Positions 27,494-60,406 of a stretch of DNA of 64,000 nt are shown here, one piece after another. The notes under the pieces were generated by a model, which ran no database searches, was not told where the DNA came from, and was given only the letters and a program-made list of their open reading frames with translations. The DNA comes from Quercus robur (lineage: Eukaryota; Streptophyta; Magnoliopsida; Fagales; Fagaceae): NCBI RefSeq assembly GCF_932294415.1, contig NC_065537.1:62696290-62760289 (forward strand). Reading direction: 5' to 3'. The stretch's first letter is position 1. Each line of letters starts with the position of its first letter. The position numbers and the translations under genes are program-made.

Positions 27494-27693
27494 GTGTGTG
27501 TTTGACCGGGCTTCAACAATTCAATTTTTTTACTATTTAATTTATTTTTATTATTATTTATAGGTTTTAATATATTTTTTGATACTATTTATACGTCCTA
27601 TTGTACTATTTCAGTTATCTTTTAACTTTATCTGTAATACTTTCAGCAAAAAAATTTAAATTTCAACTAAATAAGTTATTCTCAAACAAACAC
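27494..27693. mobile_element. PIF/Harbinger-type MITE related to the one at 39179-41105
   Basis: At 200 bp its terminal GTGTGTTTGACC and CAAACAAACAC are imperfect inverted repeats. The interior shares strings such as CTTTTAACTTTATCTGTAATACTTTCA with the MITE at 40904-41105. A TAA precedes the left end, but the right flank begins directly with another repeat, so no target duplication is seen. Confidence 0.55.
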
Positions 27694-28037
27694 TGGAGAC
27701 GGAACTACCTTAGGGCTGAGAGGGCCATGATCCCTCCCAACCTTTGAAAAAAAATTCCCTAGTATATGTATTTGCATAAAAAATATACTTTTGGCTCCAA
27801 AATTAATATACTTAGCCCCCCTCTCCCAAACAATTTACAAGTTGACCCATGAAACAAAAAAAAAAAAAAATTATCAAATTATCCCTTGTCTAGTTGCCCC
27901 AAAAATATCAAGAAAAACATTTAGCTAAACATTTGGACAATTTACAAATCCGGACAATAAGGAGAATTTACAAAACAATTCATATATTCAGATAATAATA
28001 AAAAATTCTTTGGACACGATCTAAGTTAAAATATATA

Positions 28038-31655: not shown

Positions 31656-31911
31656 ACTTACACATGAATTTACTAAGTGCAAAAGTTGTCGTAACAGAAT
31701 AAGGGATAGGAGATATCATATGAGGGAAAAACATGGATCAAGGTAGTGGCAAAGTAAATATAACACTCCCTGGTAAAATAAAAATTGGCCCCATGAAAGG
31801 TCAAATCGTGTATCAATCTATGTATATCAAAGCAATTAAATTCCTTTTGAGTATATTGAAGCAACAAATAAAATATATTACATTAATTAACCAATAGTCG
31901 TATTAGCTACA

Positions 31912-34900
31912 TTAATTCCATGACTTGGAACATCCCCAGTGCATTGACCAACCTAAATTTGTTGTTACATTAGCCAATCGTTTATAAGAAGTGTACTTGA
32001 ATTGCTTCCAATCGCGAAGGACAGCCTTTAGATCATTCACCTTGGCACTAATACTTCTACAACAATTGGCATGTACAGTGGCCACTAATCTCAAATCCTT
32101 GCTATCTTGGCAAAACCCACTAAAATAAAGGGTGTCCAAGAAAGTTACTCTAAGATTTAATTCTCTAATTATGCCCCCTTTTATTAGGTTTAATAACACA
32201 TCCTGCTCTTTTTGTCCTCTAGAGTCGTTCTTCATGGCATACCATATTCCTAATAATTTGATGGTCTTATTATTTGATTGGATGTAGTAGAAGCCAGTAT
32301 TGATTTGATGATTTTCAGATCGCAAATCACCTAAAAAATAGTCAGTACTAATTTGAAGATCCTCGGTTTCATTTGTGCTTAGCCTAATAAGGGGATTCCT
32401 TAGCCACATCACATCTGTATCCTGTTACAGAAAGTTACCAACCATTTAAAAATAAATATAATGTTTAAGAAAATACAAACAAAGAGGGCAAAAAATAAAA
32501 ACAAAGAAAAAAGAAAAGAGCATTATGAGGAAAGACTTTAGTTTGGTTTAAATTGTTCAATATTAAACTTTTGTTTATTGTTAATTCAACAAAAAGAAGT
32601 TAGATATGAAAAAAGTATCTTATAAAACAGTTTCACGAGACCTCTCTTGCACAAGATGTGTGAGTTCCACATTTGTGGATCTCACAAGCAAGATATAAGG
32701 GGATGGTCTCATGAGATTGTTTCATAAAATATCCTCTTGTTAGATATAGACCTATTCAACAAGAAAGTATCATGAAATCATCTAATGGAGTATTCATCTC
32801 ATATTTGGTAGATCTCATTACCATATACTAGTGGAAGTCATATATTGTAAGAGAAGTGCTCCATGAGTTAGTCTCTTAAGATAATTTTCCCCATCCAACC
32901 TAATGGCTAATACAAATAGAATGGTACCATTGCTTGAACGTACAATGGCGCCAACTTACAAAAAGTTTTTCAGACAATTTCCGATACTACAAAAAAATAA
33001 CTCAAAAATTTAGATATTAAAACTTCTAAAAGACCAAAAACAAACTAATCTTGAGCAATTTCATTCACTGAAATTTCCTACCCATTTGAGATCATTCGCA
33101 AAAATATTATGGAATTGGGGGAAGTGAAGATAGAGGAGAGGAGATGAGAGGGAGCTCACACAACTTTATAATGGTTGGTGTAATTTTATTGCCAATGATG
33201 GACATCAAGCATTCCCAAATTCTTCTTCATCTTGGAAGTCAAGTAGCAAATTAAGAACCATACAAGAAAGAAAAATGAGAGGAAACTAGTTGTCAATCAC
33301 TTTCATATAAATTCACGACTTTTTCTATACCACTCACAGTTAGGAATTAACCACATAGAATAATTGTAAAAAATGTTATAGTAAAAGTTGTGGCGGTAAA
33401 ATTTTTTATTTCTCACACACTTCTCAAGCGTAAAAATTGTCACTTCCTTCTTTTATGACTACCATTAACTTTCCAACATTTCTTTATTACCACAATCTCA
33501 ACTGTTGACAGTTTCTTCAAAACCCAAACTAAGCTCCTTTTGATTTGCATGTCTTCGCTTTCCTAAATGACTCTGAAATTTATAAGCTTTCTTCTCACAT
33601 AATCCATATTGTTAGAAGTAAAGCCCTAGATAACACTAAACTTAGACACTCAATAAGAACATTCACATAAACCTAAACTAATTTTTTTACTGAACACATA
33701 AACCGAAATTTAGACACTCCAATAATAACATTCACATAAACCTCTTTATAAGTTTATAAGCTAAGTTTTGATATTATAAAAAATAAAAAAATAAAAAATA
33801 AAAACTCATTTTTTTCTTTCTATTTTGTTATTCTATTTTTCACTTTACCTTCTACTTTTTTACTATTCTATTTAGATACTATTATTTATTTTATTTTATT
33901 CACAAACAAATCTAGGGTCTGTTTGGATAGAACTTATTTTGCTGAAATTGAAAACTGAAAACTGAAAATACTGTAGCAAAATAATTTTTAAATGTATGAA
34001 TAGTATTGTGGGACCCATTTTTAATGAAAAAATTGTCAAAAAATGAGATTTGTGGGTCTCGTAACTGAAAAGTTGCTGAAAAGTTGTGTAAAAGGTACTG
34101 AAAAATTAATTAAAATAATTTTTAAACGCTGAAAAGTTGATTAAAGTGCTGACAAGTTGCTGAGGTGTGCAATAAGTTTGGTACCAAAGTCAATAATCAC
34201 GGCACAGCTGAGAAAGAAAAAAAATGGTTGAAACGCGCAACAGTATAAACACAAACGTGAATAATCCGTATCCAAAACAACACCTAATGACCAAAATTGA
34301 CTACCGACGGCAACAATCAAGATCGGATACCCACAGCATAGATCAGCCACTTACATCTTATAGCCAAATCGACCCCCCAACAACCATATTAGCCACCCTA
34401 TGGCAACCTCGACTACGGCATGCCTAATCTCAATTATTGAACACTTGACCACCAAAATCCAATGTCAAAAACGGATTGTTTACTAAGCCTTTTTGACGTG
34501 GGCTAATCAAATTTTAATTGAAGAATTCGGATAATTAATCTATTGCTAATTGACATTTGACATACCAAAAAATTACACAGGAATATTCATATGGCATGAA
34601 CCCCATCCTAGGAAACAAAAGTTCAAAGCCATTTAAAATCACACACACACATCTCTATATATATAATAATAGGTAAAGCTGAAAAAAACTCAAATTAGAA
34701 TTTTAAATTAGAGTTCCAATTTTGCGCCATGTGTCCTAAATTATTTATTCTTAAAGAGATTTATTTCTTAATTTTAGAATCAAATGTGGGACTACATCAT
34801 AAATATTCATCCAAGTGAGTTATTAAGTACAAAAACCAATGAGTCTAAAATAAATAAATCATAAAAAAAAATGCTTCACAATAATAATAAAAATGACAAT

Positions 34901-36469
34901 TTACATTTTATATCTAATAATATTTTTATAAATTTTTTGAAAGAGTTAACAAAATATAAAAATGACTATCAATAGTATTTAAATTATATATGTATATAGG
35001 AATTATATTATGTATCTTATTGTATTTGAAAATAATACAAAATGCTCTAGTTAAACCGACCTTGGATTGTGTTTAATGCATTTTGGTATTGCACCTCTGA
35101 GTGTGTTTGTATAAGCAAAAACTATCCTTTTGAGTTTAAAATAAGAATTTGTGAAAATACTATGAAAATTGTGGTTTGCAAAATAAAGTTTTAAGTTTTA
35201 AAAACACTCTTTTAAACTTCCAAATACCTAACAAAATGGGCCTGAAAGTCCAATACGAACACGCAAAAAAAACGCATTTACATTTTACAAGCCCCAAAAA
35301 ACGCTTTTTTACTAGCCCAAAAGTTGAACCAAACGGGCATTGTAACCTGTCATATTCCTGACAAAAAAGTCAATATCTGCCATATTCACAATCCTATCAT
35401 ATTCCAACACCATTGTTTCAATTCCAACCAACCATTTACATTATCAACCAAAATCCATCTAACGGCGTAGCTTTTGTTTTTCCTCATTAATTAAAAGTTG
35501 AATGAGAGGAGCCGAAAAATTTGTTTGTAAGTGCGAACTTCAAGTTTGCTTCAAAAGTGTTACTTTCTAGTTTCTACTACATAAGACATTAATTATAAAA
35601 GCCAATAGTGTACTTCTAACCATACCATATCCAGAATTACTATCTAATATGTATAGAGTAGTGTTCACCTACTCTGTTACACATAGTTTCAAGAATAACT
35701 TGAAGATCATAATTGTAAGTCATAGTTGGTTTTTCAAATGGGTGTAACAGAACGTGTAATAACTTTTAGCCATGTTTATAACTCCAAATATATACTATAA
35801 ATGCAATACTAAACTATAACTTACCGTGAAAATGAAGCTGTAGCCACGTTTAAGAACCTCGATAAGAAACTGGGTTCTTCTCCACATCATCTTGATGAAA
35901 TCCTCGGACATGTAAACTTTTTCTCCCTCAAAATCCACACCGTCCGTTTTCAATCTGTAGCAGTTCAACCGTCGAAACAGGCAGCGATCATAGGCCGTCT
36001 GATCTATTGCCACGATCAAAAGGTTGTCAAGCAGTGGCCTAGTGTTCTCCCCAAGCCAAAAGCTCTCAAGAAAAAGGTCAAGCATGGTGATGTCAGCTTG
36101 GATGTCTTGGACAGCATAGGCCTTGTTTATGATGGTGATTATGACCGTTTTGTTTGCCATTGAAGCTTTGGATAAAGCTTCTTCAAGCTCATCTTGAGGA
36201 ACACGTATGTTGGTCTGTAAGAATTAAAAGATTTTTTGAGTTTTTGGTACAAAATTAAGATAACCCATATGCATGTTTGTGAAATAAATGAAGGAATAAG
36301 CTTGAAAGTTGAAACTTACTGTGTTTGATTGTGTGGAAAGAGATTCCTTTCGGAACACACTGAATGGATTTGTGATATAGGAGGAGGACCAAACAGCAAG
36401 ACACAAGAACCCCACGAAGAATAATAAAAGTATTGCAGGGTTTCCAAATGAGTGTTTTACATGATCCAT
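31912..36469 (-). CDS. GT77-type (Nucleotid_trans) glycosyltransferase, copy A, 349 aa
   Basis: Three exons: 36469-36320 (50 codons), 36214-35825 (130) and 32421-31912 (170 with stop). All junctions are GT/AG and in phase 0. The start MDHVK matches the paralogue's MDYVK. Residues 12-29 form one membrane helix, so it is probably a type II Golgi protein. Exon 2 carries KTVIITIINKAY and a Leu-rich stretch; exon 3 opens with the metal/nucleotide-sugar DxD motif, DTDVMWLRNP (D181-T182-D183), then INTGFYY, GQKEQDVL, FLDTLYFSGFC and HANCC, the order typical of plant At4g15970-like proteins (Pfam Nucleotid_trans, CAZy GT77). Relatives add arabinose or xylose to wall glycans and glycoproteins; substrate here unknown. 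The C-terminus ends KSWN, eight residues shorter than copy B, because of a 4-bp insertion. The 3.4 kb intron 2 holds a MITE. Confidence 0.9.
33915..34283. mobile_element. Harbinger-type MITE in intron 2 of copy A
   Basis: This 369-bp insertion starts GGGTCTGTTTGGATA and ends TATCCAAAACAACAC, with CTA on both sides. The same intron of copy B (near 59150) lacks it and reads straight from ACAAACAAAT into AATGACCAAAAT, so it inserted after the duplication or was lost cleanly from copy B. It is non-coding. Confidence 0.72.
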
Positions 36470-37543
36470 GTGTGTCTTTTGGGGTTTTTGGATGATCAAG
36501 ATGTCTCACTTCTAGAAAAAAAATTGATAGAGAAGGAACTTAGATAAAGAGGGAGAGAGAGATTGAAAAGGTCATGCTAGGTAGAAAGGTCATCATCATT
36601 TACCAAATTACCACCAAAAAAGCAAAAAAAGGTAGGAAGGTCATGCAATCTGCCTGAAGTCTTAGAAACATCATATTAATTCCAATCACTTCAGGATATA
36701 TTGTACTTGTGGTAGACTGGTAGTTGTAATACTTTTCATTTTCTTGTCCAAATTCTTGGTTACCGCATGCTGCATGCATATTCCAGCCCACCAAATATGG
36801 AAATTATATGTTAGAGAAATACTTATATTTTTATGATTTTTTTTTTTTGAGAAAATAAAGATAGACATGAAGTACATATAAAAGAGCATTCACATAGCTC
36901 ATGCAAAATTTTATTTCTATTTTAGCATAAGAATCTACTTTTTTTTTTTCCTTCTATTTTACACATACTTACGTTTCAAAAAACCAAACATTAAATTATC
37001 TATTTTATATTACATTTCATTAAAATATTAAATTTTCTTGATTTTTTTAAAAATTGTTTCTCTTTCTTCACACACAACAATCACCATCCACTTTCTTCCT
37101 TCATCTTTGGGATATATAAAGAAAAAATAAAAAACTAAATGCAAAATAAATAGTGTCAATGTAAATCTACACGATTACTATAACAACAATGTATTTTTAC
37201 ATAATTTTACATAATCTGATGAGGGTGAATTTTCAACTTGATAAACTAAAATGTGGTATATTTTCTATTATATAAACATTGATTTGAGTGCTTTTCAGAG
37301 CTATGTGCATAATGATAAATAACACAAAAATAGTCACATATGGAATTTTAAATTATACATAGACATTACTAATACAAGCCAAGCATAATTGTAGATGGTG
37401 CAGAGAATTTCAACAAATTGGTAAAACTCTGACATGAATATAAAACCACCAAAAACTGTAACACTACAGAACAAAATTGTATGAGAATTTTATTTTACAG
37501 TATTGGTGTTAAATATTGAATTAATACTGATAGGTCAAGAATG

Positions 37544-38520: not shown

Positions 38521-38550
38521 TGATCTACATATGTCCTAATAGATACCATT

Positions 38551-38980
38551 AATTCCTATTAGAAAATAGAAATGACTATATATATATGTCGAATTCTGAT
38601 TTTCGTAGTCATTAGATTACGTGAATTAATTTACATGTGACAAGTCATGTTCTAGAAGTTCAGTTGTAGAGACTTGTTGTAGTCACAGAAGTGTTAGGAC
38701 TTGGGAGTCACGAGTGGCTCATATCTCGCCAGCAATGTATAAAGAGTCATAAATTCTTTGGTCATAAATTCCTATTAGAAAATAGAAATGACTATATATA
38801 TGTCGAATTCTGATTTTCGTAGTCATTAGATTACGTGAATTAATTTACATGTGACAAGTCATGTTCTAGTAGTTCAGTTGTAGAGACTTGTTGTAGTCAC
38901 AGAAGTGTTAGGACTTGGGAGTCACGAGTGGCTCATATCTCGCCAGCAATGTATAAAGAGTCATAAATTCTTTGGTCATA
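38551..38980. repeat. Near-identical 216/214-bp tandem duplication
   Basis: Units 38551-38766 and 38767-38980 differ by one substitution (TCTAGAAG against TCTAGTAG) and by one TA repeat. Such identity, in a region where the other duplicates are clearly diverged, points to a recent event. No coding content. Confidence 0.88.
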
Positions 38981-39185
38981 AAATGGAGATGTCAAAACGT
39001 ATTTCCACGTTTTTAACTACTAGTCAAAGTTTTAACTTTTAAGTTTTAAAATGGTTGAAAACGTTTATAATGCTATCAAAGTTTAATAATTCCATCTTAA
39101 TTAAATTCATCTCATTTGAAATAATGAAATCCATTCATTAATATGAATTACCAGAAGTTGAGTCAAATAAATAATTAAGAGTCTA

Positions 39186-39951
39186 CAGTAGTGGTTCTAG
39201 GAATTTTTCCCAAGGTGTTCCTTAAGAATTTCTAAGTCAAAAACTTAAAGTCAACATGAATTCGTTTAGAAGATGAAGCTGAATTTTGCACAAAAGATGA
39301 ATTTTGGGTACGTGGTTTTCTTATCAAATACTTGTCCATATTTCTAGCAAAATAATAAATAATAAACTATAAGTTCATTTGAAATATTAATAAAATTATT
39401 AATTATTGTTGTTTAGTTGTTTCATTAATTTGTTTGTCTTTTATAAACTACTATAATTTGTTATATTGTTGTTTCATTAATTATAAAATTATTAATTGTT
39501 GTTTAGCCTAATATAGTAACATAATTTAATTTGTTTGTCTTTTATAATGTATTGGTTAATGAAATTATTAATTATTGTTTATTAGTTGCTTTCTCCAATT
39601 AATTATTGGTTAATTAAATGATTGTTTATTAGTTGCACTGCTACACTAGCACATAGCCACACACCCATGTGCATTTACCCCGGCCTCATGCCCCCATCCA
39701 CCCCCCAATTCAACAGACAAGCCCCAATGCCCCATGGCCCCCAATCACAAGACTAGAGCCAATCAAATAAAGCCAATTAATTGTATCTCACCAAAAACAC
39801 AACACCAATACTAAAAGACAATTAATTTATCTCACCAACACCAATACCAACGGATAACTCCAAAAATAGGGAAAATATTAATAAAAATTTATAAAGTAAA
39901 CTAAGCAAAAGGCAAAACAACAGACAAATGACAATCATAGTTCAAAGTCTT

Positions 39952-39982
<31 letters not shown>

Positions 39983-40538
39983 CATCGGTGTACAACTCTT
40001 CAAACTCCTCCTCTTATAGATCAAAGAAAGGAGTGACTCTGTGGACCACCGTGGGGTCGAGCACTTGGTGCTTGGCCGCCCTTATCACATTCTTTCAGTT
40101 TGAATGGGAGATCGAGTTCGAGGCCCGATCTGGCGATCTCCTTCTCCGTCCATTCTGTTGGTCGTCTCAAGGGAAAAAGCGAGTGACCCAAGGCAAGGAA
40201 AGCGAACATTCCCTCATATCTAGGGCCAGCCACAACGTATCCCAATCATCCATTGTCATCCACACCAAGTACGCCGCCTCCGAAGCCGTCATCGTGTCTA
40301 AGAAGCTCCTCCGTAGCACTAGCAAGGTGGGGTGGATCGTCGGCACCACCTTCCTGATCCTGGCTATGCCACTTATCATCGAGATGAACTGCGACCAACA
40401 ACTCACCGAAATCGAGCTCCAAAATGCTAGCCTTCTCGGCACCACTCCCACTCCTAAATGAGTGTGACAGAGAGAGAGAGAGAGCCTTTTGCTTCTTTCT
40501 TTTTCAATTAGGGTTTTCGAAAAGTTTCAGACTTTTTT

Positions 40539-40583
<45 letters not shown>

Positions 40584-40629
40584 ATTTCGGTTCTGTTTGA
40601 GGCTGGATCTGATTTCAATATATTAGGTT

Positions 40630-40668
<39 letters not shown>

Positions 40669-40903
40669 TATTTTGAGAGTCCGTGGGTTACTAGGTTTGC
40701 TACCATTTGTTGGGCTTGTCGTGGGCTTGACGTTGGGCGTGCCGCTTGCTCTGTTACAAATTTTTTTTTTTTTAGGGTGTTCCTAATTTTTTTTTAAAGG
40801 GTAAACAAATAAAAAAAAATTTTAATTACTATATATAAATTTTTTTTTTTTCAATTAAGGGTGTTCTTGGGAGCACCCTGAGCATAACGTGGCGCCACCA
40901 CTG
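39186..40903. mobile_element. hAT (Tip100-like) non-autonomous element carrying a TOM22-like gene
   Basis: The 1718-bp insertion has inverted ends CAGTAGTGGTTCTAGG on the left and CAGTGGTGGCGCCACG on the reverse of the right. It is flanked by an imperfect 8-bp duplication, AGAGTCTA (39178-39185) and AGAGTTTG (40904-40911). The right copy is intact MITE sequence, so the element landed in the first bases of the MITE. Subterminal GGTGTTCCTTAAG and AAGGGTGTTC also mirror each other. There is no transposase frame; the only recognisable coding content is the TOM22-like sequence. Confidence 0.65.
39928..40461 (+). pseudogene. TOM9-2/TOM22-like mitochondrial import receptor sequence captured in a hAT element
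   Basis: An open frame of 177 residues starts at an ATG at 39928. Its last 99 residues, from about 40162, match plant TOM22 (TOM9-2), a tail-anchored outer-membrane subunit of the TOM protein-import complex: SEHSLISRASHNVSQSSI, SKKLLRST, the membrane helix WIVGTTFLILAMPLIIEM, then ELQNASLLGTTPTPK and stop. This length equals a whole plant TOM22 as I recall it. No Met lies at or near the expected start; the only upstream ATG adds 78 residues, including RERERERER from a GA microsatellite. The gene lies inside the hAT-like element. Captured and probably non-functional, though the tail region is fully open; translation as a long fusion cannot be excluded. Confidence 0.72.
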
Positions 40904-41132
40904 AGAGTTTGTTTGGCAAAGATTATTTTTGCCAACTTATTTTACTATTCAGCTTATTTTTGCTATTATTCATGAGTTCCACTGTACTTTTTGGTATTAT
41001 TTATGGATCCCATTGTATTATTTCAGCTAACTTTTACTTTTATCTATAGTACTTTCAACAAAAAGTTTTCAGTTTCAGCAAAATAAACAAATCCCAAACA
41101 AACCCTAAATATCATAAATGGTGATATAGAAA

Positions 41133-41187: not shown

Positions 41188-42074
41188 TCCTTTTTAACAA
41201 AGGTTTTTTAAGAGCTAGAGAAAGATAGGTACATATTTACCTTTGTTAAAGAGAGTATAGGATTTTTGGCTCTTTGTTGTTTTTCCCCAGAGTGGACTAA
41301 CAAAATACCAAAGTTTTTTAATATAAATAAAATTGTTAGGAATAAAGGTATTTTAGTAAGGATAAAGTTTGGTTACAAATTTAGTTAAATTGGCTACAAC
41401 TCCCATTAAAAAAAATTAACATAGTTATGTATTTTGAAAATTTAATTGTTGGATTACATATTCTTTATGTTCTTAACACGCATATCAATTGGATGTTATT
41501 TACTATTTGCTTCATAAATTTATTTTTTATACATATTTTTAAACTACAAAAGTTGAAATTTAAACATTTGATTGATAATATAACTATTAATCTTTGGTTT
41601 TCTTGAAAATTTGCAAGCATGAATGATATATGAAAAAAATGTTATCCAATTGTGGATTTCTCAAAATTTACATCCAATAAAAAGATATTAAGTAAAGTTG
41701 TAACCATTGGCTTGTCTTTTTATAGCAATGTAAATTCATAATCAACTAGGAATAGGATTCATATATGCCTAAGGTAAAATTTAAATATTTCCCAAACCTT
41801 AATGGCTTCAAAAATTGGAAGTCAATTTCATTTAAAAAGTTCCAAACTTTTACTACTAGAATCAGGTTGGACCGAAAAGCCCGTTAAACCCGTTCTATTA
41901 TCATTCATTAAAGACCGTGATTCTCAATTAATGTTTAGCATATACAATTCATTAAAAGAGACCCGACCATGCAATTGAGGTAGAATGTTTTTTAGTTTAA
42001 CTTTGCATACCCCAAGAGAGATCACATTAGGTAAGAGAGATGTAATTAGGGCAAGGTACAAGGCTCTTGGTGTT

Positions 42075-43235: not shown

Positions 43236-43240
43236 TAAGT

Positions 43241-43423
43241 ATTTTATCAAAATATGCAAAATGCATCTAAGTTTCAATTGATAGAATAACAAAATATTTC
43301 CACGTTTTTAACTACTTGTCAAAGTTTTAACGTTTAAAATGGTAATCACAGGGTTGAAAACGTTTATAATGCTATCAAAGTTTAGTAATTCCATCTTTAA
43401 CTCATCTCATTTGAATAGTCAAA
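43241..43423. repeat. 183-bp repeat unit, left of the LINE
   Basis: It matches 49333-49515, right of the LINE, and more loosely about 38990-39178. Its last 11 bases, GAATAGTCAAA, are the left target duplication of the LINE, so the LINE entered a pre-existing tandem pair. Confidence 0.85.
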
Positions 43424-43799
43424 GGAGTTTGTGCTTAATGACGAGAGATGTTTAGTGCTTTTCTCCCTTAGGAAAAAGTATTAGTTAAAAACTTCATTAG
43501 AACAATTATTTTTTTTTTTTTTTTTTGATATCGTTAGAGAACCATTAAGTATTGAGCGTTGAAAAATGTTGGAGTTGATTGGATCCGGTGCATTAGTGCT
43601 GGTTGATTGGAATGTTTCTTTGATCTAATGGTTTTCAGGTCTCCAACACCTGCTAACATTAGACTGTAGAATGTTCTTGTGAGTGTTTTTGTTTGAATCC
43701 TTGAAGTAACTAGTTTACTATCAAGGCTTGTAGGGCTTTGTTTCTTGGGGTTCTGGGAAACAGTGAGTGCTTTGAGTGTTTGCTCGAACAGTTTTCTCT

Positions 43800-45089
43800 A
43801 TGGAGGATATCATGAATGGATGGAAAAAACTATCCCTCTTAGACAGAGAAGGGAATGAATTCAAATTTCAGGCGCAACATAAATCCCAAGAGTTCTCGAT
43901 TGTGGCGAAGTTCTTCACACCTAGAGCTCTAAATGTGGAAGCAGTAACACGTACCTTTAACCCTATCTGGAGATCAAAGAATGGGTTTCAGATCCAAAAT
44001 CTTGGTGACCATTGATTATTGTTCATTTTTGAAAATAAATCAGATGTGGAAAGGGTCTTACGCAATGAACCTTGGAGCTTTGACAAGCATGTTATTGTAC
44101 TCCAATACTTTAACAAAACCCTCCCGTTACGTGATGTGGTGTTTAAGGAGACCGTTTTTTGGGTTCAAGTGCATGACATACCGATCACATACATGAACCA
44201 AGCTATGGCTGAAGCTTTGTGTGCATCGATTGGAGAGGTGATTCATGTGCCGGGGAACTCTACCTTGGGCGGACAAGGTTTTATGCGGGTACGGGTTCGA
44301 GTGGATGTTACTCAACCCCTTTGTCGTGGGAGAGTGGTGACTTTGGAAAATGGTGAGCAGTCATGGGTAGCCTTTAAGTATGAGCGGCTGCCAATTCTTT
44401 GTTATTGGTGTGGACGTCTAGACCATACCGATAAGGACTGCGAAGAATGGATTCAGAGTAATGGCACCCTCAAGATAAAGGACAAAAGGTATGATTCTAG
44501 CATTAAAGCCTTGCCTTTCTATCCCTCAAGCAAAAATTCTGTTTGTGTGCCTGGTTATTTTGAAACACAGAAACAGAAAATCAAAGAGAGGGCGACTGTC
44601 ACGATGAAATTCAATCGGAGAGGAGAGCCGGATGTCCAGTGCCGGCAACAGGGAAAACCATAAACGGAAGGTGCGCCTAGTCCGGATGAATTTAATGCTA
44701 ACTTGAATCCAGACAAGCCGGTTTCAACGCCTATTTTTCAGAGTCAACATGAGGCCGTTAATGATGATACAATTAATCCCATTAATTCAGAGCGCACGTC
44801 CAAGGATTCTGATCTGCATGGGATTAGCCAACATGCTGATAATGTATTGGATGACACGGTGGAGTCCACTGGATGTAGTGAGGCCCGTGTTGGGCTAGGC
44901 CCAACCAGCATTGGAAACAAAAAGGACCCTCTTGTGAGACCGGGCCTGGTAAAGGAATTTTCAGCCAAATGGGTGAGGATGGCCCGGCCTAACAATCACT
45001 ACGTAGAAGTAAAAGACGCTGCACAACTGGGAAAGCGCCATGTTGAAGCTTCTTCCTCTGAACATCCAGAAGCAAAGCGTCGTTTGTAG
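43800..45089 (+). pseudogene. LINE ORF1 (DUF4283 / zinc-knuckle protein), two stop codons
   Basis: The frame starts at ATG 43800 (MEDIMNGWKKLSL) and stays in one frame to 45089, apart from TGA at 44013-44015 and TAA at 44661-44663. The first part is the nucleic-acid-binding DUF4283 type (FNPIWRSKNGFQIQNLGDH, then VERVLRNEPWSFDKH). A CCHC knuckle follows (CYWCGRLDHTDKDC, near 44400-44441), then a Ser/Asp-rich tail with a basic end (EAKRRL). ORF1 proteins of plant L1 elements bind the element RNA. Both stops are nonsense changes without frameshift. Confidence 0.88.
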
Positions 45090-45157
45090 CAGAATGAGGC
45101 TTCACAGCCACTCTCTTTCTCAATGGTGGAGGCTGCCTAGTAGCCCCGCCGACTCCA

Positions 45158-48100
45158 ATGAGTTGGCTATGTTGGAACGTGCGGGGGCTTGGGAACCAAC
45201 GCACCGTTCATGAGCTTGCATCGATAATGCGGGCGCAAGATCCTGCTGTCCTGTTCTTGGCCGAGACATGGGCAGACGATGATAGGCTTTCTAAGATTTG
45301 TGATGACTTGCATTTTGATGAGAAATGGGTAGTTCCAAGAGTGACAAGGGCTGGCGGTTTGGCCCTTTTATGGAAGAACACAATTCAGATTAATGTGGAC
45401 TCCTCTTCTCTTAATCATATTGATGTTATAGTTAACAGAGGAAGGGAGGATTCATGGAGGTTCACGGGTATTTATGGGTTTCCGGAGGCCAGCCGGAAAA
45501 GTGAGACTTGGAATTTACTGCGTAATCTCCATCGGAAATACACCCTTCCGTGGTTGTGTGCCGGTGATTTCAATGAAATCCTACTGTCACATGAAAAGCT
45601 TGGAGGGGGACTGAGAAGTGCAGCAGCAATGAGTGAGTTTAGAGAGGTTGTGGATGACTGTGGGTTCATGGACTTAGGGTGTGTGGGGAAAAAATATACT
45701 TGGAGAGGCAAGAGAGGTGATACCATGGTATTGGAGAGACTTGACCGTGCTCTTGCTACTCATTCATGGCTTGCTCAGAATCCAGCTACTAGAGTTCAAT
45801 GCATTCGGTCCTATGTTTCTGATCATTATCCCATTATTATTAATCCTGAAGGGGTTGCAGATAGACCTTGCAAACCCTTTAGGTTTGAACACATGTGGTT
45901 GAAAGAAAGTGGATGTAGTGATACCGTAAAGCCAGCATGGCTGTCTCCTTCCCCTGTTTCAAGCTCTCCGATGATGCATGAAAAAATAAAGCTTTGTGGT
46001 ATTAGGCTTATGGAGTGGAGCAAGAGATCCTTTGGCAGCGTGAGGAAGCAGTTGGAGGAAAAATCAAAACTTCTGGAAAAGGCTGAATTTGCAGTGGCAA
46101 GGGGGGCAGACTATGAACCAGTGAGATTACTAAAATTGGAGGTCAATGAATTGTTGGACAAGGAGAGCTTAATGTGGCAGCAGAGGGCTAGAGCTTTGCA
46201 TCTTAAGTGTGGTGATCAAAACACACGGTTTTTCCACAACAAAGCTTCTCAGAGATTTAGGCGCAATAGGATTGTGGGTTTATTGGATGACTCTAATTCA
46301 TGGTGTACAGATACTAAGTAGGTGGCTGATATTATAGTTGAGTTTTATTTGAGGTTGTTCACATTTGAGAGACCATCCACTGCCCAAGGTATTTTGGAAG
46401 TGATACAACCCATAGTCACTGAAGAGATGAACACCAACCTAATTAGAGATTTCACTAGACAAGAAGTTGATCTTGCTTTGAAGGAGATGGCCCCACTTAA
46501 GGCTCTAGGACCCGATAGTATGCCTCCTCTATTCTTTCAGTCTTTTTGGCCTTTGATTGGTGATGATGTCTCTAAAGCTGTCCTGGATTGTTTACAGTCA
46601 TGTTATATTCCTAAAGAGTTCAATTACACTTATGTGACTCTTATTCCTAAAGTGAAAAATCCTGAAAAAATTGCTGAGTTTAGGCCAATAAGTTTGTGTA
46701 ATGTTATTTATAAATTGATTTCAAAGGTTCTAGCAAACCGATTGAAACCTTTATTGCCTTCTATTGTGTCTGAGAATCAAAGTGCTTTTCAAGCTGGGAG
46801 GGTGATCACAGACAATATCCTCATGGCATTTGAAACTTTACATTACATGAAAACTCAGCAAACTGGTTCCACAGGTTTTATGGCTCTCAAACTCGACATG
46901 AGTAAGGCGTATGACCGAGTTGAATGGTCTTTTCTGGATTGCTTGTTGAGAAGATTGGGTTTTCATAACTGCTGGGTTGATCTTATGATGGAGTGTATTA
47001 CTACCGTCTCTTACTCTATTCTGATCAATGGGGAGCCCTCACAAACCATCTATCCTAGTAGAGGATTGCAACAAGGAGATCCTATCTCTCCTTACCCATT
47101 CCTCCTTGTTACAGAGGGTTTGCACGGCCTAATTTCCAAAGCGGCCACTTTTGGTGATATTAGAGGTATATCTATTTGCAGGAATGGTCCTCGATTAACC
47201 CACTTATTTTTTGCAGATGATAGCCTTCTTTTTTGTAGAGTTTCTTTACAGGAATGCAATCACATACAAAACCTTCTTGCTACTTATGAAGAAGCTTCTG
47301 GGCAACAACTGAATCGGGAGAAGACAAAGTTGTTCTTCAGTAAAAATACGGGCATTGAGGTCCAAGAATCTATCAAAGATTTGCTAGGGGTTCCGGAGAT
47401 TAAGCAGTATGAAAAATATTTGGGCCTACCATCCTTTGTGGGAAAGCGAAAGAAAGCAAGTTTGGCTTACATTAAAGATCGGATTTGGTCTAAGCTCCAA
47501 GGGTGGAAAGAGAAGCTCCTCTCCCAAGCTGGTAGAGAAGTCCTTCTAAAGGCAGTGATACAAGCGATCCCAGCCTACTCTATGAGTTATTTTAAACTCC
47601 CCATTTCACTTTTCCAGGAGATTGAGATCATGATTCGACAATTTTGGTGGGGACAACGTGGTACAAGAAGGCGTATTCATTGGGTAAAATGGCGCACTTT
47701 ATGTAGGCCAAAAGCTTATGGAGGTATGGGGTTTCGGGAGCTTAGAAGTTTTAATGACGCCATGCTAGCCAAGCAAGTATGGCGACTATTAAACAATCAA
47801 GACTCCCTTTTTTACAGGTTCTTTAAATCAAAATATTTCCCACATGGGTCTATTTTTTATGCTAAGGACACTAAAGGGTCTTTTGCATGGAAGAGCATTT
47901 TGAAGGGTAGAGAACTCATCAAGGGGGGATTGATGTGGAGGATTGGGGATGGTGCACAAGTGCGTATTTTTCATGATGCCTGGCTGCCTGGCTCTCAACA
48001 CGGTAAAGTGTTCTCCCCTGCCCTTGAAAGCCATGCAAATGCCTTGGTTTATAACTTAATTAACCATGAAGATAGGAGTTGGAATGTGGCTGAGATTGAT

Positions 48101-49246
48101 AGAATGTTCTTACCTAATGAGGCAGCCACCATCAAGGCCATTCCACTTAGTTTGTTTGCTCAACAGGACCTCCCTTTTTGGCCATTCTCCCGTGATGGTA
48201 GGTTCTCGGTTAAGTCTGGTTATCACCGTTTAATGGAGCTTGAGGATACAGAGCAAAATGATACGGCGCATCCTGGGACTGCATCTTTGGTTTGGAAGGC
48301 CATTTGGCGCATGAAAGTGCCAAACCGTGTAAAATCTCTTGTATGGCGAGCTGGGAGAAATGCCCTTCCTACACGGATGAACTTGGTCCGGCGAAGAGTC
48401 CTTACTGATGCGGTATGTTCGGAATGCAAGGTACAGGCAGAGGACACGCAGCATGCTCTCTGGTCCTGCCCGATCCTACAGGAGGTGTGGAAAGTGCATT
48501 TTGAAAAGCTTGTGACAGACGCAGGCTCTTGCTCCAGGTTTATTGAAGTTCTGGAACGTGCGACATCAGAAAAACCGTCATTGGACTTGTTTGCTATGAC
48601 GGTAGCGGAAATCTGGATGCGCCGAAACAGAGCTCGTATGGGAGAGCCTACTGTACCGGTCTGCCAGGTTGCTCTTAAGGCAGCTAGTTCGCTTCAAGAA
48701 TTCCAGCAGCTTCGCCCCGCTCATGCTGTGATACCAAGAACAGCCCGTGCAGTAAAATGGAGGCCTCCCTCTGCGCCATGTGTGAAGGCGAACTTCGATG
48801 GTGCTATCTTCTCCCAAGATGGACTAGCTGGTACTGGCGTGATAATCCGAAATGAGCAAGGATTGGTTATGGCTGCTTTGTCACAACAAATTCCATCACC
48901 TGCTTCGGTGGAGATGGTGGAGGTGTTAGCGGCTCGTCAAGCTCTGGTTTTTGCTAAGGAACTTGGGTTTGACAAGATAATCTTGGAGGGTGACTCTGAG
49001 ACGGTTATCAAGGCTATTTTAGGTGACTATATGGACTGCTCTTATATGGGTCATGTACTGCAGGATATTAAGTTGTTGTTTTCTAGTTTTTCTTTTATTT
49101 CAGTCAAGCATATTCATAGGGAAGGGAATTGTGTTGCCCACAAAGTTGCTAGACGGGCTATTAGAGATCCTTTTCTTGTATGGATGGAGGATGTTCCTCC
49201 AGATATTTTTTATGTTTATCAACTTGATCTTTTAAGGATGCATTAA
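45158..49246 (+). pseudogene. LINE ORF2 (endonuclease, reverse transcriptase, RNase H), one stop codon
   Basis: The ATG at 45158 (MSWLCWNVRGLG) opens an apurinic-type endonuclease with NVRGLG, AETW, GIYGFP, CAGDFNE, LDRALA and SDHYPI motifs. A single TAG at 46319-46321 splits the frame, which then continues to 49246. The reverse transcriptase shows KALGPDSMPPLFF, FRPISLCNVIYK, LKLDMSKAYDRVEW, GLQQGDPISPYPFLL and the catalytic FADD (near 47212). A zinc-binding RT-associated domain (about 48280-48500) precedes an RNase H with NFDGAIF, EMVEVLAARQAL, LEGDSETVI and HIHREGN. The total is 1363 codons with stop. Only the one TAG prevents a full product. Confidence 0.93.
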
Positions 49247-49332
49247 TAAATTTTTTAACCCAAGGGGGTTGTTTCTCAAAAAAAAAAAAAAAAAGAATAG
49301 TCAAAATATGACAAGTAGTTTAGTAATTCCAT

Positions 49333-49515
49333 ATTTTATCAAAATATGAAAAATGCATCTAAGTTTCAGTTGAAAGAATAGCAAAATATTTCCACGTTTT
49401 TAACTACTTGTCAAAGTTTTAACGTTTAAAATGGTAATCACGGGGTTGAAAACGTTTATAATGCTATCAAAGTTTAGTAATTCCATCTTTAACTCATCTC
49501 ATTTGAATGGTCAAA
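49333..49515. repeat. 183-bp repeat unit, right of the LINE
   Basis: Partner of 43241-43423, from ATTTTATCAAAATATG to TTGAATGGTCAAA. Before the LINE arrived the two units stood about 27 bp apart in direct orientation. Confidence 0.85.
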
Positions 49516-49605
49516 TCCATTCATATGAATTACCAGCAGTTAAGTGTAATAAATAAATAAATAATTAAATATCATAAATAGTGGTACAGAAACATTTTTT
49601 TAAGA

Positions 49606-49761
49606 TTTTTTTTATACAAAGATAAAAATTCTATTTTAATTTAATTTAAATGTACATGTGTATAAAACTTCAAACTAGAGACTTAAACCCAGGTCTTGCC
49701 CTCGACACCCCACAAGCACTTATACTTGTGGAGTGATCATTGCACCAAGGACGTGTGGTGG
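49606..49761 (-). mobile_element. tRNA-derived SINE
   Basis: On the minus strand TTGGTGCAATGATCA is an A-box relative and GGGTTTAAGTCTC a B-box relative, followed by TTTTATACACATGTACATTT and AATAGAATTTTTATC into an A-rich tail. It is the same family as 51447-51627. Copy C lacks it at the matching place. TTTTTAAGA-like sequence on both sides may be the target duplication. Confidence 0.68.
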
Positions 49762-50535
49762 TTTTTAAAAGAATTTTTAAGAGAGAAAGATAGGTACACA
49801 TTTATTTTTGTTATAGAAAAAATCATTGGATTTTTTGCTCTTTGTTGTTTTTCCCTATTGTGGAATAACAAAAAATCATAGTTTTTTATTTATTTATTTA
49901 TTTATTATTATAAATAAAATTGTTAGAAATGAAAGTATTTTAGTAAGGACAAAGTTTGGCTACAAACTTTGTAGAATTTGTTATAATTGTCACTAAGAAA
50001 AATTAACATGGTTACATATTTTGAAAATCTAATCATTGGATTACATGTTCTTTATATTCTTAATACCCATATTAAACTTCATGCCAATTAGATATTATTT
50101 ATTATTCGGTCCATAAATTTTTTTTTTGCATAATTTTAGATTACAAAACTTGAAATTTAAACATTTGATTGATGTCATAGCTATTAATATTTTATTTTCT
50201 GAAAATTCTGCAAGAATGGATAATATAAAAAGGAAATGTTAGCCAATTATGAATTTCTTAAAATTCACATCAAATAAAAAAATATTATGTGAAATTGTAG
50301 TCCTTTTAGCAATATAAATTCATACGTACCTTAAGGTCAAATTCAAAAGCTTTGAAGTCAGATTCATTTAAAAAGTTTCTAACCGTTATTATTAGAATCA
50401 TGTTTTTTCATAAAGCCCATTAAACTCGGCACATTATCATTTCATTAAAGAGCATGATTCTTAATTAATATTTTGTTACCATTTCTTTTATGGATGTGGG
50501 TTTTATCCAGTGTCCTGTGATATTGAACTCACTGC

Positions 50536-51627: not shown

Positions 51628-52393
51628 ACTAGCTTATTTTTAAAAAAACTAAAAATTAGAGTATTTGAAAAAAAATAAAATAAAACTTTAAACAAAAAGC
51701 AAAAAAACTTTTCTCAAATACACTCAGGAATATTACTAGCTTGCTTGTAATGGGCTTGTACATAACATCCCTCTGTAACCTTTCCAATCTAATCATCTAC
51801 TTTATCAGACGAGACAAATATTTAAATGAAACAAAAAAGAAAGGAAAAAAAAAAACCTAACACATTGCCATGAAATATTATTAAAGAGCTAATATTGATA
51901 CATTTTCATAAACAATGATATCTAAGCTTATCTAAAAATAAAAAAAGAGAGATTATAATTTTAAATATTCTTAATAAATTGTTATTCTTATTTTATCCAA
52001 TAAACATATAAATTCATAAATAACTATATTATATGTATATATATAATTATTAGCGATAAATCCTAAATAGTACACTAGTATTAATTGTTATCAAAATATT
52101 TCGATTCTCAAACTAACCAAAACGGCCTCTGTTACGGTATTTACTTCGTTGGTCAAACCGTATACAGGATAATTTACCAACACTAAATGCCAATTTACTA
52201 AGCGCAAAAGTCATCATAATAGAATAAGGGATAAAAGATATCATATGAGGCGAAAATGTGGATCAAAATGGTGCCAAAGTAAATATAACACTCCACAGTC
52301 AAATCATGTATCAATCTATGTATATCAAATAGATAATATTCCCTTTATGAGTTTGAAAAATTGAAGCCACAAATAAAACAAACTATACATTAA

Positions 52394-55300
52394 TTAACCC
52401 ATTGTCGTACTAGCTACTTTCCATGATTTGTAACATCCCCAGTGTAATGACCACCCTAAATTTGCTGTTACATTAGCCAATCGTTTATAAGAAGCGTACT
52501 TCTTGAATCGCTTCCAATCACGAAGGACGGCCTTTAGATCATTCACCTTGGCACTAATACTTCTACAACAATTGGCGTGTACTGTAGCCACTGCCCTTAG
52601 GTCCTTGCTATCTTGGCAAAACCCACTAAAATAAAGGGTGTCTAAGAACCTTACACTAAGATTTAATTCTCTAATTATCCCCCCTCTTATCAGGTTTAAT
52701 AACACATCTTGCTCTTTTTGCCCTGTTGAGTTGTCTTTCATGGCATACCATTTTTCTAATAATTTGATGGTCTTATTATTTGATCGGATGTAGTAGAAGC
52801 CAGTATTGATATGATGTTTTTCAGATTGCGAATTACCTAAAAAATTGTCAGTACTAATTTGAAGATCCTTGGTTTCATTTGTACTTAGCCTAACAAGGGG
52901 ATTCCTTAGCCACATCACATCTGTATCCTGTTACAAAAAGTTCAACCATATAAGAATAGTATAATGTTTAAGAACATACAAATAAAGAGGGAAAAGAAAA
53001 AACAGAGAGAAAAGAAAAGAGCATTATGTTTATGGGCCTATGGCGTAGCAAAGCCTTGATTTGGTTTAGAAAGTTCAATATTTAACCTTTGTTTATCGTC
53101 AATTCATCAAAAGAGGTTAGACATGAAAAAAAGTATCATATAAGATAGTCTCTTAAGACCTCTTTTGCACAAGATGTGTGGGTTCCACATCTATGGATCT
53201 CACGAGCTAGAAATGAGAGGATGGTCTCATAATACAAATTCATGAGATATCCTCTTGTTAGACATGGGCCAAAATAGGGAGAGAGTATCATGATATCATC
53301 TAATGGAGTACTCCTCTCATATTTGGTAGATCCCATTATCATATATCAGTGAGAGTCATATATTTCGAGAGAAGCGCTCCATCAGAGTCTCATAAGATAA
53401 TTTTTCCCATCCAACCTAATGCTAATAAAATGGTGCTCTATGAAATGAATTAAGCGGAACGAACTAAATTGAACATCTAGCTATTTGAACAATCTATTAT
53501 TTGGCTTAGAAATTAACAAACTAATCTTGAGCAATTTCATGATATAGGGGGGGGGGGGGGTGGGGGGAGTGAAGATAGAGAATATGAGAACGTAAATACT
53601 TTGATTACACAATATGTGATTTATTTATTTTTGCCAAGTCACATTTTCCCCCTGAATATACAAAAGACTTTCTTTTGTAGTGGAAAAGAGAAAAACAAGG
53701 CTACGGAGTATGAGAAAAACTTAAGATAGTCCTGGGACTATCTAAGTATCACTCATGGAGTATGGGTTCCCCTCCATCTAAAAGATTACAGGGTACAAAC
53801 AACAAATCCGTAAAGAGGCAAAAAAAAAAAAAAAAAAAAAAAAGGCCCTAATGTGTTACAAAAGAAAGCCCAATAGCCTTATATAAAAAAAAGCCCAATC
53901 GGCTAAGTTATGTGTTACACATCTTTTTCCTAACTTGTTTACAAAAGAAAGCGCAATGGGCTTCTATAGAAAAAGCCCAATCGGCTATGTGTTACACATT
54001 TCAACTCTCTTTTTACGAGCTTGTCTTTTTCTAGTGGAGGATAAGAGAAATTATTCCATATATGTGGGTTTATTAATTTTTAACTTGACCAATTTTTTTA
54101 TAAAAATAGAGTGGCGTTATTTCACACACTTTGTTTCCCACGAATTGCACACATGCACAATTTTACATTGAAATCGTCTTGATTTCCATACTGAAATTGT
54201 AACTTCAAGTAATGAGTTTTGTACAAAATTGTGTCTGTGTGTACTTTGTGTGTAATAATATATGTGCACTAGTTATTACCCTTAAAAATAAGAGAAACAC
54301 TATGTTCACAATAATTTCACAACACTTTCATAATAAATTTTAGGGATAATTACACCTTACCTACCTGTGGTTTGTCTCTAATTTGATGTGCCTATCCGTG
54401 GTTTAAATTTTGACACTTTACCCACCTGTGATTCCCACCGTTACTGTGCCGTAACCCACCTCTCCCTCAGCCGTTACTCTAACACAGAATATGTAAAAAA
54501 AAAATACCCAAACAGATCAAAAAGTTAGGGTTTTTAATTGTTTAAGAACTTCTATGAGAATATATGCCCAGAAAAATCAAACCTAAGTCAACCACTATAA
54601 ATATCATATTTTCCTTCTCTACATGTCTCTTTCCTCTCACCTATTCTTCTACAACATTCTCTCTCTCATCTCTTTGCTTTCTCTCTCCGATGGTGGAGTT
54701 AAGGAGGACATTGGCCACCACAGTGATGGGTTTCATTTTCCTCTGTTCTTGCTTCATGGGTTTCATTTTTTTGTGGTTTTGGTTGTGGGTTCATTTGATT
54801 TCGTTCGTTCTCGCATTCGTCTCGGTTTCAGCCTTTGTCTCGGCGGTTTGGAGCAAATCCAGGAAGAGGGTCGGCGGTGGTTTAGAGAGAATAGAGCTCG
54901 ATCTTGGCCTCCATCCTAGTCTCGGCCTCCGTCTCGGCTAAAATGGAGCTCGATCTCGGCCTCCACCTGGTCCGTTGATGATTGCGAAATCCCTTTTCCT
55001 CTCTCTTTTTTGATCAACGATGGTGGTAGTGGGTTTGGTTACTTTGTTGGCATTGGTTTGTTGACTGATCGGTGGGTTTGGTGACTGATTGGTGGGGTGG
55101 ATCTTTGGTTTGGTCGGCGGGGAGGTGGGGTGGTGGTGGTTTGATTGTGTTGGTCAGTGGTGGTGGGATCTGGGTTTGATTGTGTTGGTCTGGGTTTGAT
55201 CTGGATTTGATTGTGTTTTTTTGGATTTGTTGTGATTGGTTTCTTGATTTAAGTTGGTTTATTTACTAGGTTTATGGGTTTGATTTGCTGAGAATTTGGT

Positions 55301-58300
55301 GTTGATTGTGTTAGAATTTGGAGAAGAACATGAATAATTCAAAGAACCAGTTATAAAATGAAGAATAAGTTGAAGAACATTAAGAAATGTTTTTTAATTA
55401 TAAAATTAAAAGAGAGAAAAAATATGACAGATACCCATTTGATTGATAAATTCAAAGGACACAAGAAGATAGAAAAATACCCTCATCTTCATTTGTCCTC
55501 TGAGCTTTGATTGATAAATACAAAGGAAACAAGAAGACAGATACCCATTTTATTTTTTTAATGTGACGGCTGAAGACAGAAACCCTAACTTTTTGATCTG
55601 TTTGGATTTTTGTTTTTTAAATATTCTGTGTTAGAGTAACGGCTGAGGGAGAGGTGGGTTACGGCACAGTAACGGTGGGAATCATAGGTGGGTAAAGTGT
55701 CAAAATTTAAACCACGGGTAGGCACATCAAATTAGAGGCAAATCATAGGTGGGTAAAATGTAATTATCCCTAAATCTTAAATGGAAAGTTGTTATTGACT
55801 TTTATGGGTGGATAAAAAAGTAATTTTCAAGTTGTGAATTTAAATTAAAACCAATAATAACTTATCACTTATAATTTATTGTGAAGTGTTCTGAAATATT
55901 GTGGATGTAACATTTCTCTAAAAATAATGAACACACGAGTTGATTAGATAATCAATCAAGTGTTTGCTTGTTTTTGTTTTAATTTTTTAATTTTTTGTGG
56001 CTAATGTCCCATGTGACTGATTATCATAATGAATGTTTAAACTAATTACATTTTTTTCCTTCTCTGTTTTTGTTTTCTTCTCTTCTCTTATTCTCCTCAT
56101 CCTCCTTGATTTATCTTTAAAAAGAGTTTTATATGTGAAAAATTGAAAAATCATGGATTTATATGAGAATGGAAAATAATATTGTCATACAAAAGGATGT
56201 AACGATGATTTCCCTTTGGAATAAGAATGAAATAGAATTGTAGAGGTGGTAGTGATTAATGTTGGAGTTAGATTTGGCAAATTATAGTTTTTCACCCTAA
56301 ACTATCACACCGATTGCACTTAACTCTCTGAACTATTAGGATGCACAATTGATAGTAATGGCAATGATTGCAGAGCCCATGGGAGGAGAGAAAAAATTCA
56401 AAAGGAAATGAGAGAAAAATAACAAACAATGAGAGAGAAAATTGTTTTTTAATGGAGAATGAAAAGAAAAAGGAGAAAACAAAAATGAGAATCCTCAAAT
56501 TTGGAGTTCTCATTTTTTGCTTCAGAAAATAAAATATGCAACATAAGTTTTCGTGAAAATGCAAATCAAAACCTGAAAATGTTACCAAACATCATTTATT
56601 TATTATTATATGTATAATATTACTTTATTGAAATATGTAAAATCCATTTTAAATAAAAATGTTAAATAGAGTCTAAATAACGATATCTTGAACTTGATTA
56701 AGTCTAATCACTGTGATGAATGAGTTGATTATTTAGATAACAAATGAAAAAGAAAAAATATATATATATATATATATATACACTAAAAAACAAATACTTT
56801 ATTTTTTATTTTATTTTTTGAAAATACGTAGATTATTAATCATAGGATGGTGGACTTTGTACGTCATGGTGACCATGTAACACAAAAACAAATTGAAGAA
56901 ATAATATGATATAATGGGGTTTTTTTTTTTTTTTTTTTTTTTTTTTTCTTGAATGTATTGTATAAAAGGTTGGTACAATGATTGAGGGCAACACAAATAA
57001 TTAGCATAGTATATGATCTCAGCCAAAGACATTACCTTTTGAGCATATGGTCTGAGAATTAAATGTCCCCACGTTACAGTTTTTTTTTTTTTTTTTTGAT
57101 AAGACACGTTACAGTTTTTTATGCTTGAATATGGAGACTTGTCTGAGTATAGTCATTGTCTCATTTCGGCTCATATTTAGATCTAACATGTGAAAGAAAT
57201 TATAAAGCTGCATTCCAGCTATAGCTAAATTGTCACTTTTAGTGGTCATGCAGAAAGTTTCACTCTAAAATCAAGTGAAGCTGTAGGTCATAAAAATCCT
57301 TGAAAGCTTTGGTCACTATCACTCACGATTTCAGTTCAAATTTACATGTGCACGGATGCGTGTGCAAAATGATGTGTGTATCAGAATTTGACCAATAATG
57401 CATAATCCAAACTCCAAAGTTCTTAGTATTGATTAATTTCTCACATATTATTCTAGTAACACAGCTTTTATAGTACACCTTATTATAACTATTTTATATG
57501 GTAAATTATAACTGACTGCTAGGTAATTACATATAAACTCATCACTATTTTTACACCACTCATAATTGGCCATATATAATAGTTGTAGAAAATAGTATGA
57601 TAAAGGCCGAGTGGTAGTACTTGACTTGTCACATAATTCTCAATAGTAAAAGTTGTCACTTTTTATTTTTTATTTATTTTATGACTTCTATTAACTTTAT
57701 AACATTTCTTTATTATAGGACTGGTAAAATAAGCCCAAACCCATTTGCCCATCCAAAATCACCCACTCTAATTAAACCCAAATTCACCCAATTATTAATT
57801 GGGTTAAATGGGTATCAACCCAATTAGACCTAGTGATAATTGGGTTTTAACTAAAAACCCATTGAAGCTCATTTAACCCAATAACAATATACCCAAACTC
57901 AATCTAGCCCTTCCCACCCAAAAAAAAAAAAAAAAAAAAAACCCAACCCTCACCTGAGACATTTTAGGGTTAGGTTTTCATTTTCCCCCACTTTCTCGGC
58001 CTCCAATCACTTTCTCGGCCTCCAATCACTCATTAGTAAGCTTCGAATTTCTGATTGGACCTTCTGGTTTGACAACTAGTCCAAACCCAAACAAGGTGCG
58101 GTGTGGGGCACCTCCCTCGGCAAGGTCTACACCTTCGACATCATTGAAGATATCTGGTGGTACCTTTCTAACCTTCCTCAATTCCCTAATTTATTCATGT
58201 TTTTGTGTCTATTACTATGATTCTTGATCTGGGTTCCTCTTCATCTTTGCCCTCTTTCGTTTTTGTATGTGTTAAGAATAGAAATATAGCTTGCTTTTCG

Positions 58301-59003: not shown

Positions 59004-59036
<33 letters not shown>

Positions 59037-60365: not shown

Positions 60366-60406
<41 letters not shown>

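What the first reader, a model, noticed from the sequence alone, without database searches (positions are those of the whole stretch)
39178..41108. TOM22-like gene carried by a hAT-like element nested in a MITE, with the empty site visible in the window
Seen: TAA-flanked MITE ends, inside them an 8-bp-flanked element with CAGTRGTGG ends, and inside that 99 codons resembling plant TOM9-2. Copy D (about 49561) keeps the unoccupied site. Established: Mutator elements often carry gene pieces; hAT elements less often, and here the whole conserved TOM22 length seems present. Inference: a complete small mitochondrial import gene was captured (Pack-hAT), and its reading frame has stayed open.
Basis: partly seen in the sequence, partly recalled or inferred. 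Interest (0 to 1): 0.72.

Follow-up and report, generated by a model that had tools for sequence, protein, structure and literature searches.

The report
Plant transposon carrying a TOM22-like fragment
A small plant DNA transposon appears to have picked up most of a mitochondrial-import gene and jumped into another small transposon; the structure is there, but the kind is already known and the gene copy looks like a worn fragment without its start codon.

Summary
The nested structure is there. At 39176-41108 a 201-bp MITE with TAA target duplications lies in one copy (A) of a duplicated segment; copy D has a single TAA at 49566-49568 and no MITE. Near the MITE's left end sits a 1718-bp insert, 39186-40903, with CAGTAGTGG / CCACCACTG ends and an 8-bp flanking duplication (6 of 8 match). 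It carries a 99-codon TOM9/Tom22-like stretch.

Corrections: (1) copy D lacks MITE and insert together, so the insert's own empty site is not seen. (2) A free search for such a 9-bp repeat plus 8-bp duplication is at chance in this window (14 found, mean 13.35 in 40 resampled windows); the case rests on hAT-type ends and on where the MITE is split. (3) No in-frame ATG stands at the TOM9 start; the only upstream one lies before a GA tract. (4) The open frame needs no selection unless the insert is old.

Best reading: a non-autonomous hAT-like Pack-TYPE element with a worn TOM9 fragment. Gene capture by hATs is published (grapevine Hatvine-6; maize Pack-hATs). Other copies and the parental gene could not be sought: no plant collection was on hand and the genome search did not complete.

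The parts
39176..39178 (.). TAA, left target-site duplication of the MITE
   Evidence: copy D has a single TAA (49566-49568)
39179..39185 (+). GAGTCTA, displaced first 7 bases of the MITE's left end (5 of 7 match GAGTTTG)
39178..39185 (.). AGAGTCTA, left 8-bp flanking duplication of the insert
39186..40903 (+). 1718-bp hAT-like insert without recognised transposase, ends CAGTAGTGG / CCACCACTG
   Evidence: left-end and right-end patterns match only here in the window at up to 3 mismatches
39952..39979 (+). (AG)14 tract inside the 177-aa frame, between its only upstream ATG and the TOM9-like part
39928..40461 (+). 177-aa ATG-started open frame: GA tract, unassigned sequence, then the TOM9-like part
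   Evidence: 39928-40161 alone has no Pfam match at E up to 1
40162..40461 (+). TOM9/Tom22-like stretch, 99 codons plus stop, no start codon
40904..40911 (.). AGAGTTTG, right 8-bp flanking duplication of the insert
40905..41105 (+). 201-bp MITE, PIF/Harbinger-type by its TAA duplication (label recalled); ends GAGTTTGTTTGG and GGGTTTGTTTGG
41106..41108 (.). TAA, right target-site duplication of the MITE
49382..50473 (+). copy D of the flanking segment, without MITE and insert
   Evidence: 686 of 836 gap-free aligned bases identical over two chosen stretches

Best explanation
After the duplication that made copies A and D, a PIF/Harbinger-type MITE inserted at a TAA in A (shown by comparison with D, unless D lost it cleanly). 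A non-autonomous hAT-like element, which at an earlier locus had taken up the TOM9 coding stretch with flanking DNA, then inserted 7 bases inside the MITE's left end, duplicating AGAGTTTG (the split of the MITE end is shown; the hAT mechanism is inferred from the ends and the length of the duplication). No transposase was recognised in it, so it would have been moved in trans (inferred). The TOM9 part lost or never carried its start codon and is most likely a decaying passenger (inferred).
For: Single TAA and read-through in D. The MITE's left end is present at 40905 but its TAA lies 1.73 kb upstream, followed by GAGTCTA: this places the insert and a duplication of about 8 bases without using the CAGT motif. 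The 9-bp ends and 8-bp duplication fit grapevine hATs (ends 8-23 bp, duplications 8 bp; PMC2528002, passages); CAGTGGCGGA-type ends with 8-base duplications are printed for silkworm MITE families labelled Pegasus-like (PMC2997013, one passage; that Pegasus is a hAT element is recalled). Tom22 match. The one other TOM9 hit in the window has E 0.92. Pfam scans of 17 of 17 stop-to-stop frames of 40 aa or more overlapping the insert (the longest from its ATG) gave Tom22 and no transposase.
Against: The flanking duplication matches at 6 of 8 only. The same structural criterion finds 14 places in this window against 13.35 by chance. The two 200-bp subterminal regions are not more alike in inverted orientation than shuffles (score 30; 19 of 200 shuffles reach it). 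No other copy was seen in the window. Parental gene and related elements were not found. The hAT nature of the CAGT ends rests partly on recall.
Confidence: 0.7

Rival explanations
1. Two events: the hAT-like element was in the MITE first, and the TOM9 stretch came in later by another route (retrocopy, another element, or repair at the GA tracts that lie on both sides of it).
For: The insert has blocks of differing composition: GC 0.16-0.19 at 39366-39635 against 0.50-0.60 at 39996-40445. GA tracts lie on both sides of the TOM9 stretch (39952-39979; 40469-40484 and 40540-40577). A later arrival would leave the outer ends unchanged.
Against: Apart from the GA tracts, no direct repeat flanking the TOM9 stretch stands out (it lists repeats of 14 bases or more, so shorter target duplications would be missed). 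No A tail follows the stop codon directly; the first long tract after it on the coding strand is 29 T (40632-40660).
Confidence: 0.15
2. The insert is not a hAT element: the ends and the 8-bp duplication are coincidence, and the 1.7 kb arrived by another kind of insertion or as filler DNA at a break in the MITE end.
For: The structural criterion alone is at chance level; 2 of 8 duplication bases differ; no other copies seen in the window.
Against: The break in the MITE end, placed independently, coincides with CAGT...ACTG ends and with a duplication of the length hATs make.
Confidence: 0.1
3. The TOM9-like frame is a working gene kept by selection, started at the ATG at 39928 or at a non-ATG codon.
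For: The 99 codons are open; a stop-to-stop frame of 188 codons or more appears in only 13 of 1000 resampled elements; GC at codon positions 1-3 is 0.50, 0.42, 0.67 over 40165-40458; the membrane-span proline called conserved in PMC5240110 (passages) is kept. If the insert were as old as the A/D split, an open frame would be rather unlikely without selection (0.07).
Against: No ATG at the TOM9 start; the upstream ATG reads through (AG)14, where a slip of one unit shifts the frame; 8 of 26 residues of the membrane-span core differ from the Arabidopsis protein as I recall it. The insert may be much younger than A/D.
Confidence: 0.06

Closest known systems
Pack-hAT (Pack-TYPE elements of the hAT superfamily in maize; PMC8903248, passages seen)
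   Same: Non-autonomous element with terminal repeats and target duplication, holding DNA of a cellular gene.
   Different: No cluster of copies could be shown here; here the nesting in a MITE gives an order of events.
Hatvine-6 (grapevine hAT family with transduplicated genic sequence; PMC2528002, passages seen)
   Same: hAT-type ends with captured genic sequence between them.
   Different: Hatvine-6 elements share a transposase coding sequence; none was recognised here.
PIF/Harbinger-type (Tourist-like) MITE (family label recalled)
   Same: About 200 bp, TAA duplication, matching terminal repeats GRGTTTGTTTGG.
   Different: Interrupted by the insert; not assigned to a named family, no repeat library was searched.
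Plant TOM9 (short form of Tom22; PMC5240110, passages seen)
   Same: Membrane span with its proline, and a C-terminal tail ending in a stop.
   Different: No start codon; altered core residues by comparison with a recalled sequence.

Membership tests
hAT superfamily, non-autonomous | 8-bp target-site duplication | tested here: inconclusive
   AGAGTCTA / AGAGTTTG, 6 of 8; position fits the split MITE end, but at chance as a free search
hAT superfamily, non-autonomous | short terminal inverted repeats (8-23 bp in grapevine hATs) | tested here: met
   CAGTAGTGG / CCACCACTG, 9 bp with 8 of 9 paired (range from PMC2528002)
hAT superfamily, non-autonomous | end sequence of a known hAT family | tested here: inconclusive
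   resembles CAGTGGCGGA-type ends printed for Pegasus-like MITEs (PMC2997013); no plant hAT library was searched; the plant hAT likeness is recalled
hAT superfamily, non-autonomous | related autonomous element with a hAT transposase | not testable with these tools
   no plant genome collection; the genome search did not complete
Pack-TYPE element | cellular coding sequence between the ends | tested here: met
   Tom22 match at 40162-40458, below Pfam's curated cut-off; E 4e-26 against a recalled plant TOM9
Pack-TYPE element | several copies with the same ends, parental gene elsewhere | not testable with these tools
   single copy in the window; nothing confirmed in viral or prokaryote contigs, which are not plant collections
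PIF/Harbinger MITE | 3-bp TAA duplication with matching terminal repeats | tested here: met
   empty site in D
functional TOM9 gene | start codon and intact frame | tested here: not met
   in-frame ATGs only at 39928, 40366 and 40384; 99 codons otherwise open

The most novel reading that the evidence does not exclude
The element has made a new chimeric gene: transcribed from captured or element DNA, the 177-aa frame adds a new N-terminal part to a TOM9 membrane anchor, giving an extra or interfering TOM subunit.
Probability: 0.03. Interest if true: 0.55.

Novelty: new member of a known kind. Interest (0 to 1): 0.2.

Why it matters
It is a tidy example of nested insertion with gene capture by a hAT-like element in a plant, a kind already in print. 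It would matter more only if the captured stretch were transcribed and translated.

Tried and rejected
Searches for relatives: the TOM9-like protein (40171-40458) in viral contigs (12 pattern matches, none confirmed) and genome contigs (83 pattern matches, none confirmed); left-end and right-end patterns in viral contigs (0 and 0, exact matches). These are not plant collections, so the misses say nothing about plants. PDB: 5 weak Tom22 matches (best E 0.12), none named as a plant protein. Upstream part 39928-40161 as a second captured gene: no Pfam match. Other frames of the insert: two weak hits below cut-off (DUF3082 E 0.2; Involucrin_N E 0.023) and LAS2 E 0.11, taken as chance. Shared subterminal repeats: inverted comparison not above shuffles; the direct comparison scored 31, without a control. 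A 184-bp target duplication of the LINE was considered and rejected: the LINE is flanked by GAATAGTCAAA at 43413-43423 and 49295-49305 and landed in an older tandem repeat.

Papers: (CAGTGGCGGA) gave 66 papers, 20 listed, of which I opened one for a passage; (CAGTGGTGG with hAT, matched anywhere) gave 1,022 papers, 10 listed, useless because 'hat' matched inside other words. For TOM9 with transposons: 6 papers, listing; 14 papers, listing; 0 papers. By title and abstract start, none of those listed reports a TOM9 capture by a transposon; their full texts were not read, and most subscription journals are not in the library.

The remaining frames of the insert were then scanned. Confidence in the best explanation went from 0.72 to 0.70 because the hAT type of the ends rests partly on recall.

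Full report
The window looks like plant nuclear DNA (inference from Pfam matches of 9 of the 15 stop-to-stop frames of 150 aa or more: an SRF-type/MADS domain, two nucleotide-diphospho-sugar transferase frames, an RRM, a reverse transcriptase with RNase H-like part, and an integrase with chromodomain; one of the 9 had no match). The species was not identified.

Structure. Copy A's left flank (38993-39178) matches 49382-49560 and its right flank (41191-41936) matches 49762-50473. At the junction A reads AATAATTAA, then 1.93 kb, then TAAATATCATAAAT; D reads AATAATTAAATATCATAAAT (single TAA at 49566-49568). So A gained DNA bounded by TAA, or D lost it cleanly. The right 201 bp of that DNA, 40905-41105, has ends GAGTTTGTTTGG and (other strand) GGGTTTGTTTGG: a MITE of PIF/Harbinger type by its TAA duplication (label recalled). 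Its left end is separated from its TAA by 1.73 kb, and beside that TAA stand 7 bases, GAGTCTA, that match the MITE start at 5 of 7. A later insert therefore split the MITE near its left end. The insert runs 39186-40903 (1718 bp), starts CAGTAGTGG, ends CCACCACTG, and is flanked by AGAGTCTA and AGAGTTTG.

Is it more than chance? As a free structural search, no: 14 places in the window satisfy a 9-bp inverted repeat (up to one mismatch, CA start) with an 8-bp duplication (up to two mismatches), against a mean of 13.35 in 40 Markov-resampled windows. Fixing the ends as CAGTRGTGG gives 1 pair, and none in 199 of 200 resampled windows, but the motif was fixed after the fact. What carries the case is that the break in the MITE, placed by comparison with D and with the MITE's other end, coincides with these ends. 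Similar ends with 8-base duplications are printed for Pegasus-like silkworm MITEs in PMC2997013 (one passage). The subterminal regions show no inverted similarity beyond shuffles (19 of 200 reach the score). Copy D does not show the insert's own empty site, since it lacks the MITE as well.

The captured sequence. The membrane-span proline is kept. The frame's in-frame ATGs are at 39928, 40366 and 40384, so none stands at the TOM9 start. The ATG at 39928 opens a 177-aa frame, but that frame crosses (AG)14 at 39952-39979 and its first 78 residues have no Pfam match. In a core of 26 residues, 8 differ from the recalled sequence (counted on the alignment). Pfam scans of the 17 of 17 stop-to-stop frames of 40 aa or more that overlap the insert (the longest scanned from its ATG) gave Tom22 and only weak sub-cut-off hits besides, hence no recognised transposase.

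Does the open frame mean selection? About 3.2% of random point changes in these 99 codons make a stop. Over two chosen, alignable flank stretches A and D differ at 150 of 836 gap-free aligned bases, with 14 gap events; the unalignable part beside the MITE was left out. If the insert were as old as that split, the chance of no stop and no frame shift is 0.07; at half the age 0.27, at a quarter 0.52, at a tenth 0.77 (assumes that two thirds of indels shift the frame and equal rates in both copies). The insert is younger than the MITE, and the MITE is absent in D, so ages below the A/D split are likelier. Resampled versions of the element had a longest stop-to-stop frame, over six frames, of 188 codons or more in 13 of 1000 and of 99 or more in 569 of 1000: the observed 188 is unusual, as expected where coding sequence was captured, and does not by itself show selection since.

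What is known. PMC2528002 (passages) reports that grapevine Hatvine-6 hAT elements hold genic sequence, and PMC8903248 (passages, 12 of 41 places) reports Pack-hATs in maize and proposes that Pack-TYPE elements gain DNA when neighbouring insertions are mobilised as one. The present element fits that kind. The paper searches (listings only) showed no report of a TOM9 capture.

Verdict. The anatomy is good, the interpretation mostly right, the claim of a complete gene is not supported, and the kind is known. Interest is low to moderate.

Noticed in passing
43424-49294: L1-type LINE (label recalled) with DUF4283/zinc-knuckle, endonuclease, reverse transcriptase and RNase H-like parts; the second frame has one in-frame stop (TAG, 46319-46321). 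Flanked by GAATAGTCAAA at 43413-43423 and 49295-49305 after an A tail, inserted inside an older tandem repeat (43240-43423 and 49332-49515, 178 of 184 identical).
   Followed up: partly
38547-38982: Tandem duplication of about 215 bp, 98% identical over 222 aligned positions, just left of the finding.
   Followed up: no
31667-36840 and 52192-63456: Larger duplicated stretches, 69-87% identical, with nucleotide-diphospho-sugar transferase frames in both; apparently a segmental or tandem duplication.
   Followed up: no
49590-49761: Roughly 170-190 bp in copy D that do not align well with copy A, where a CA/TA repeat stands instead; origin unknown.
   Followed up: no
27525-27694: A second MITE-like sequence, 76% identical to the finding's MITE over 170 bases, with different ends.
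   Followed up: partly
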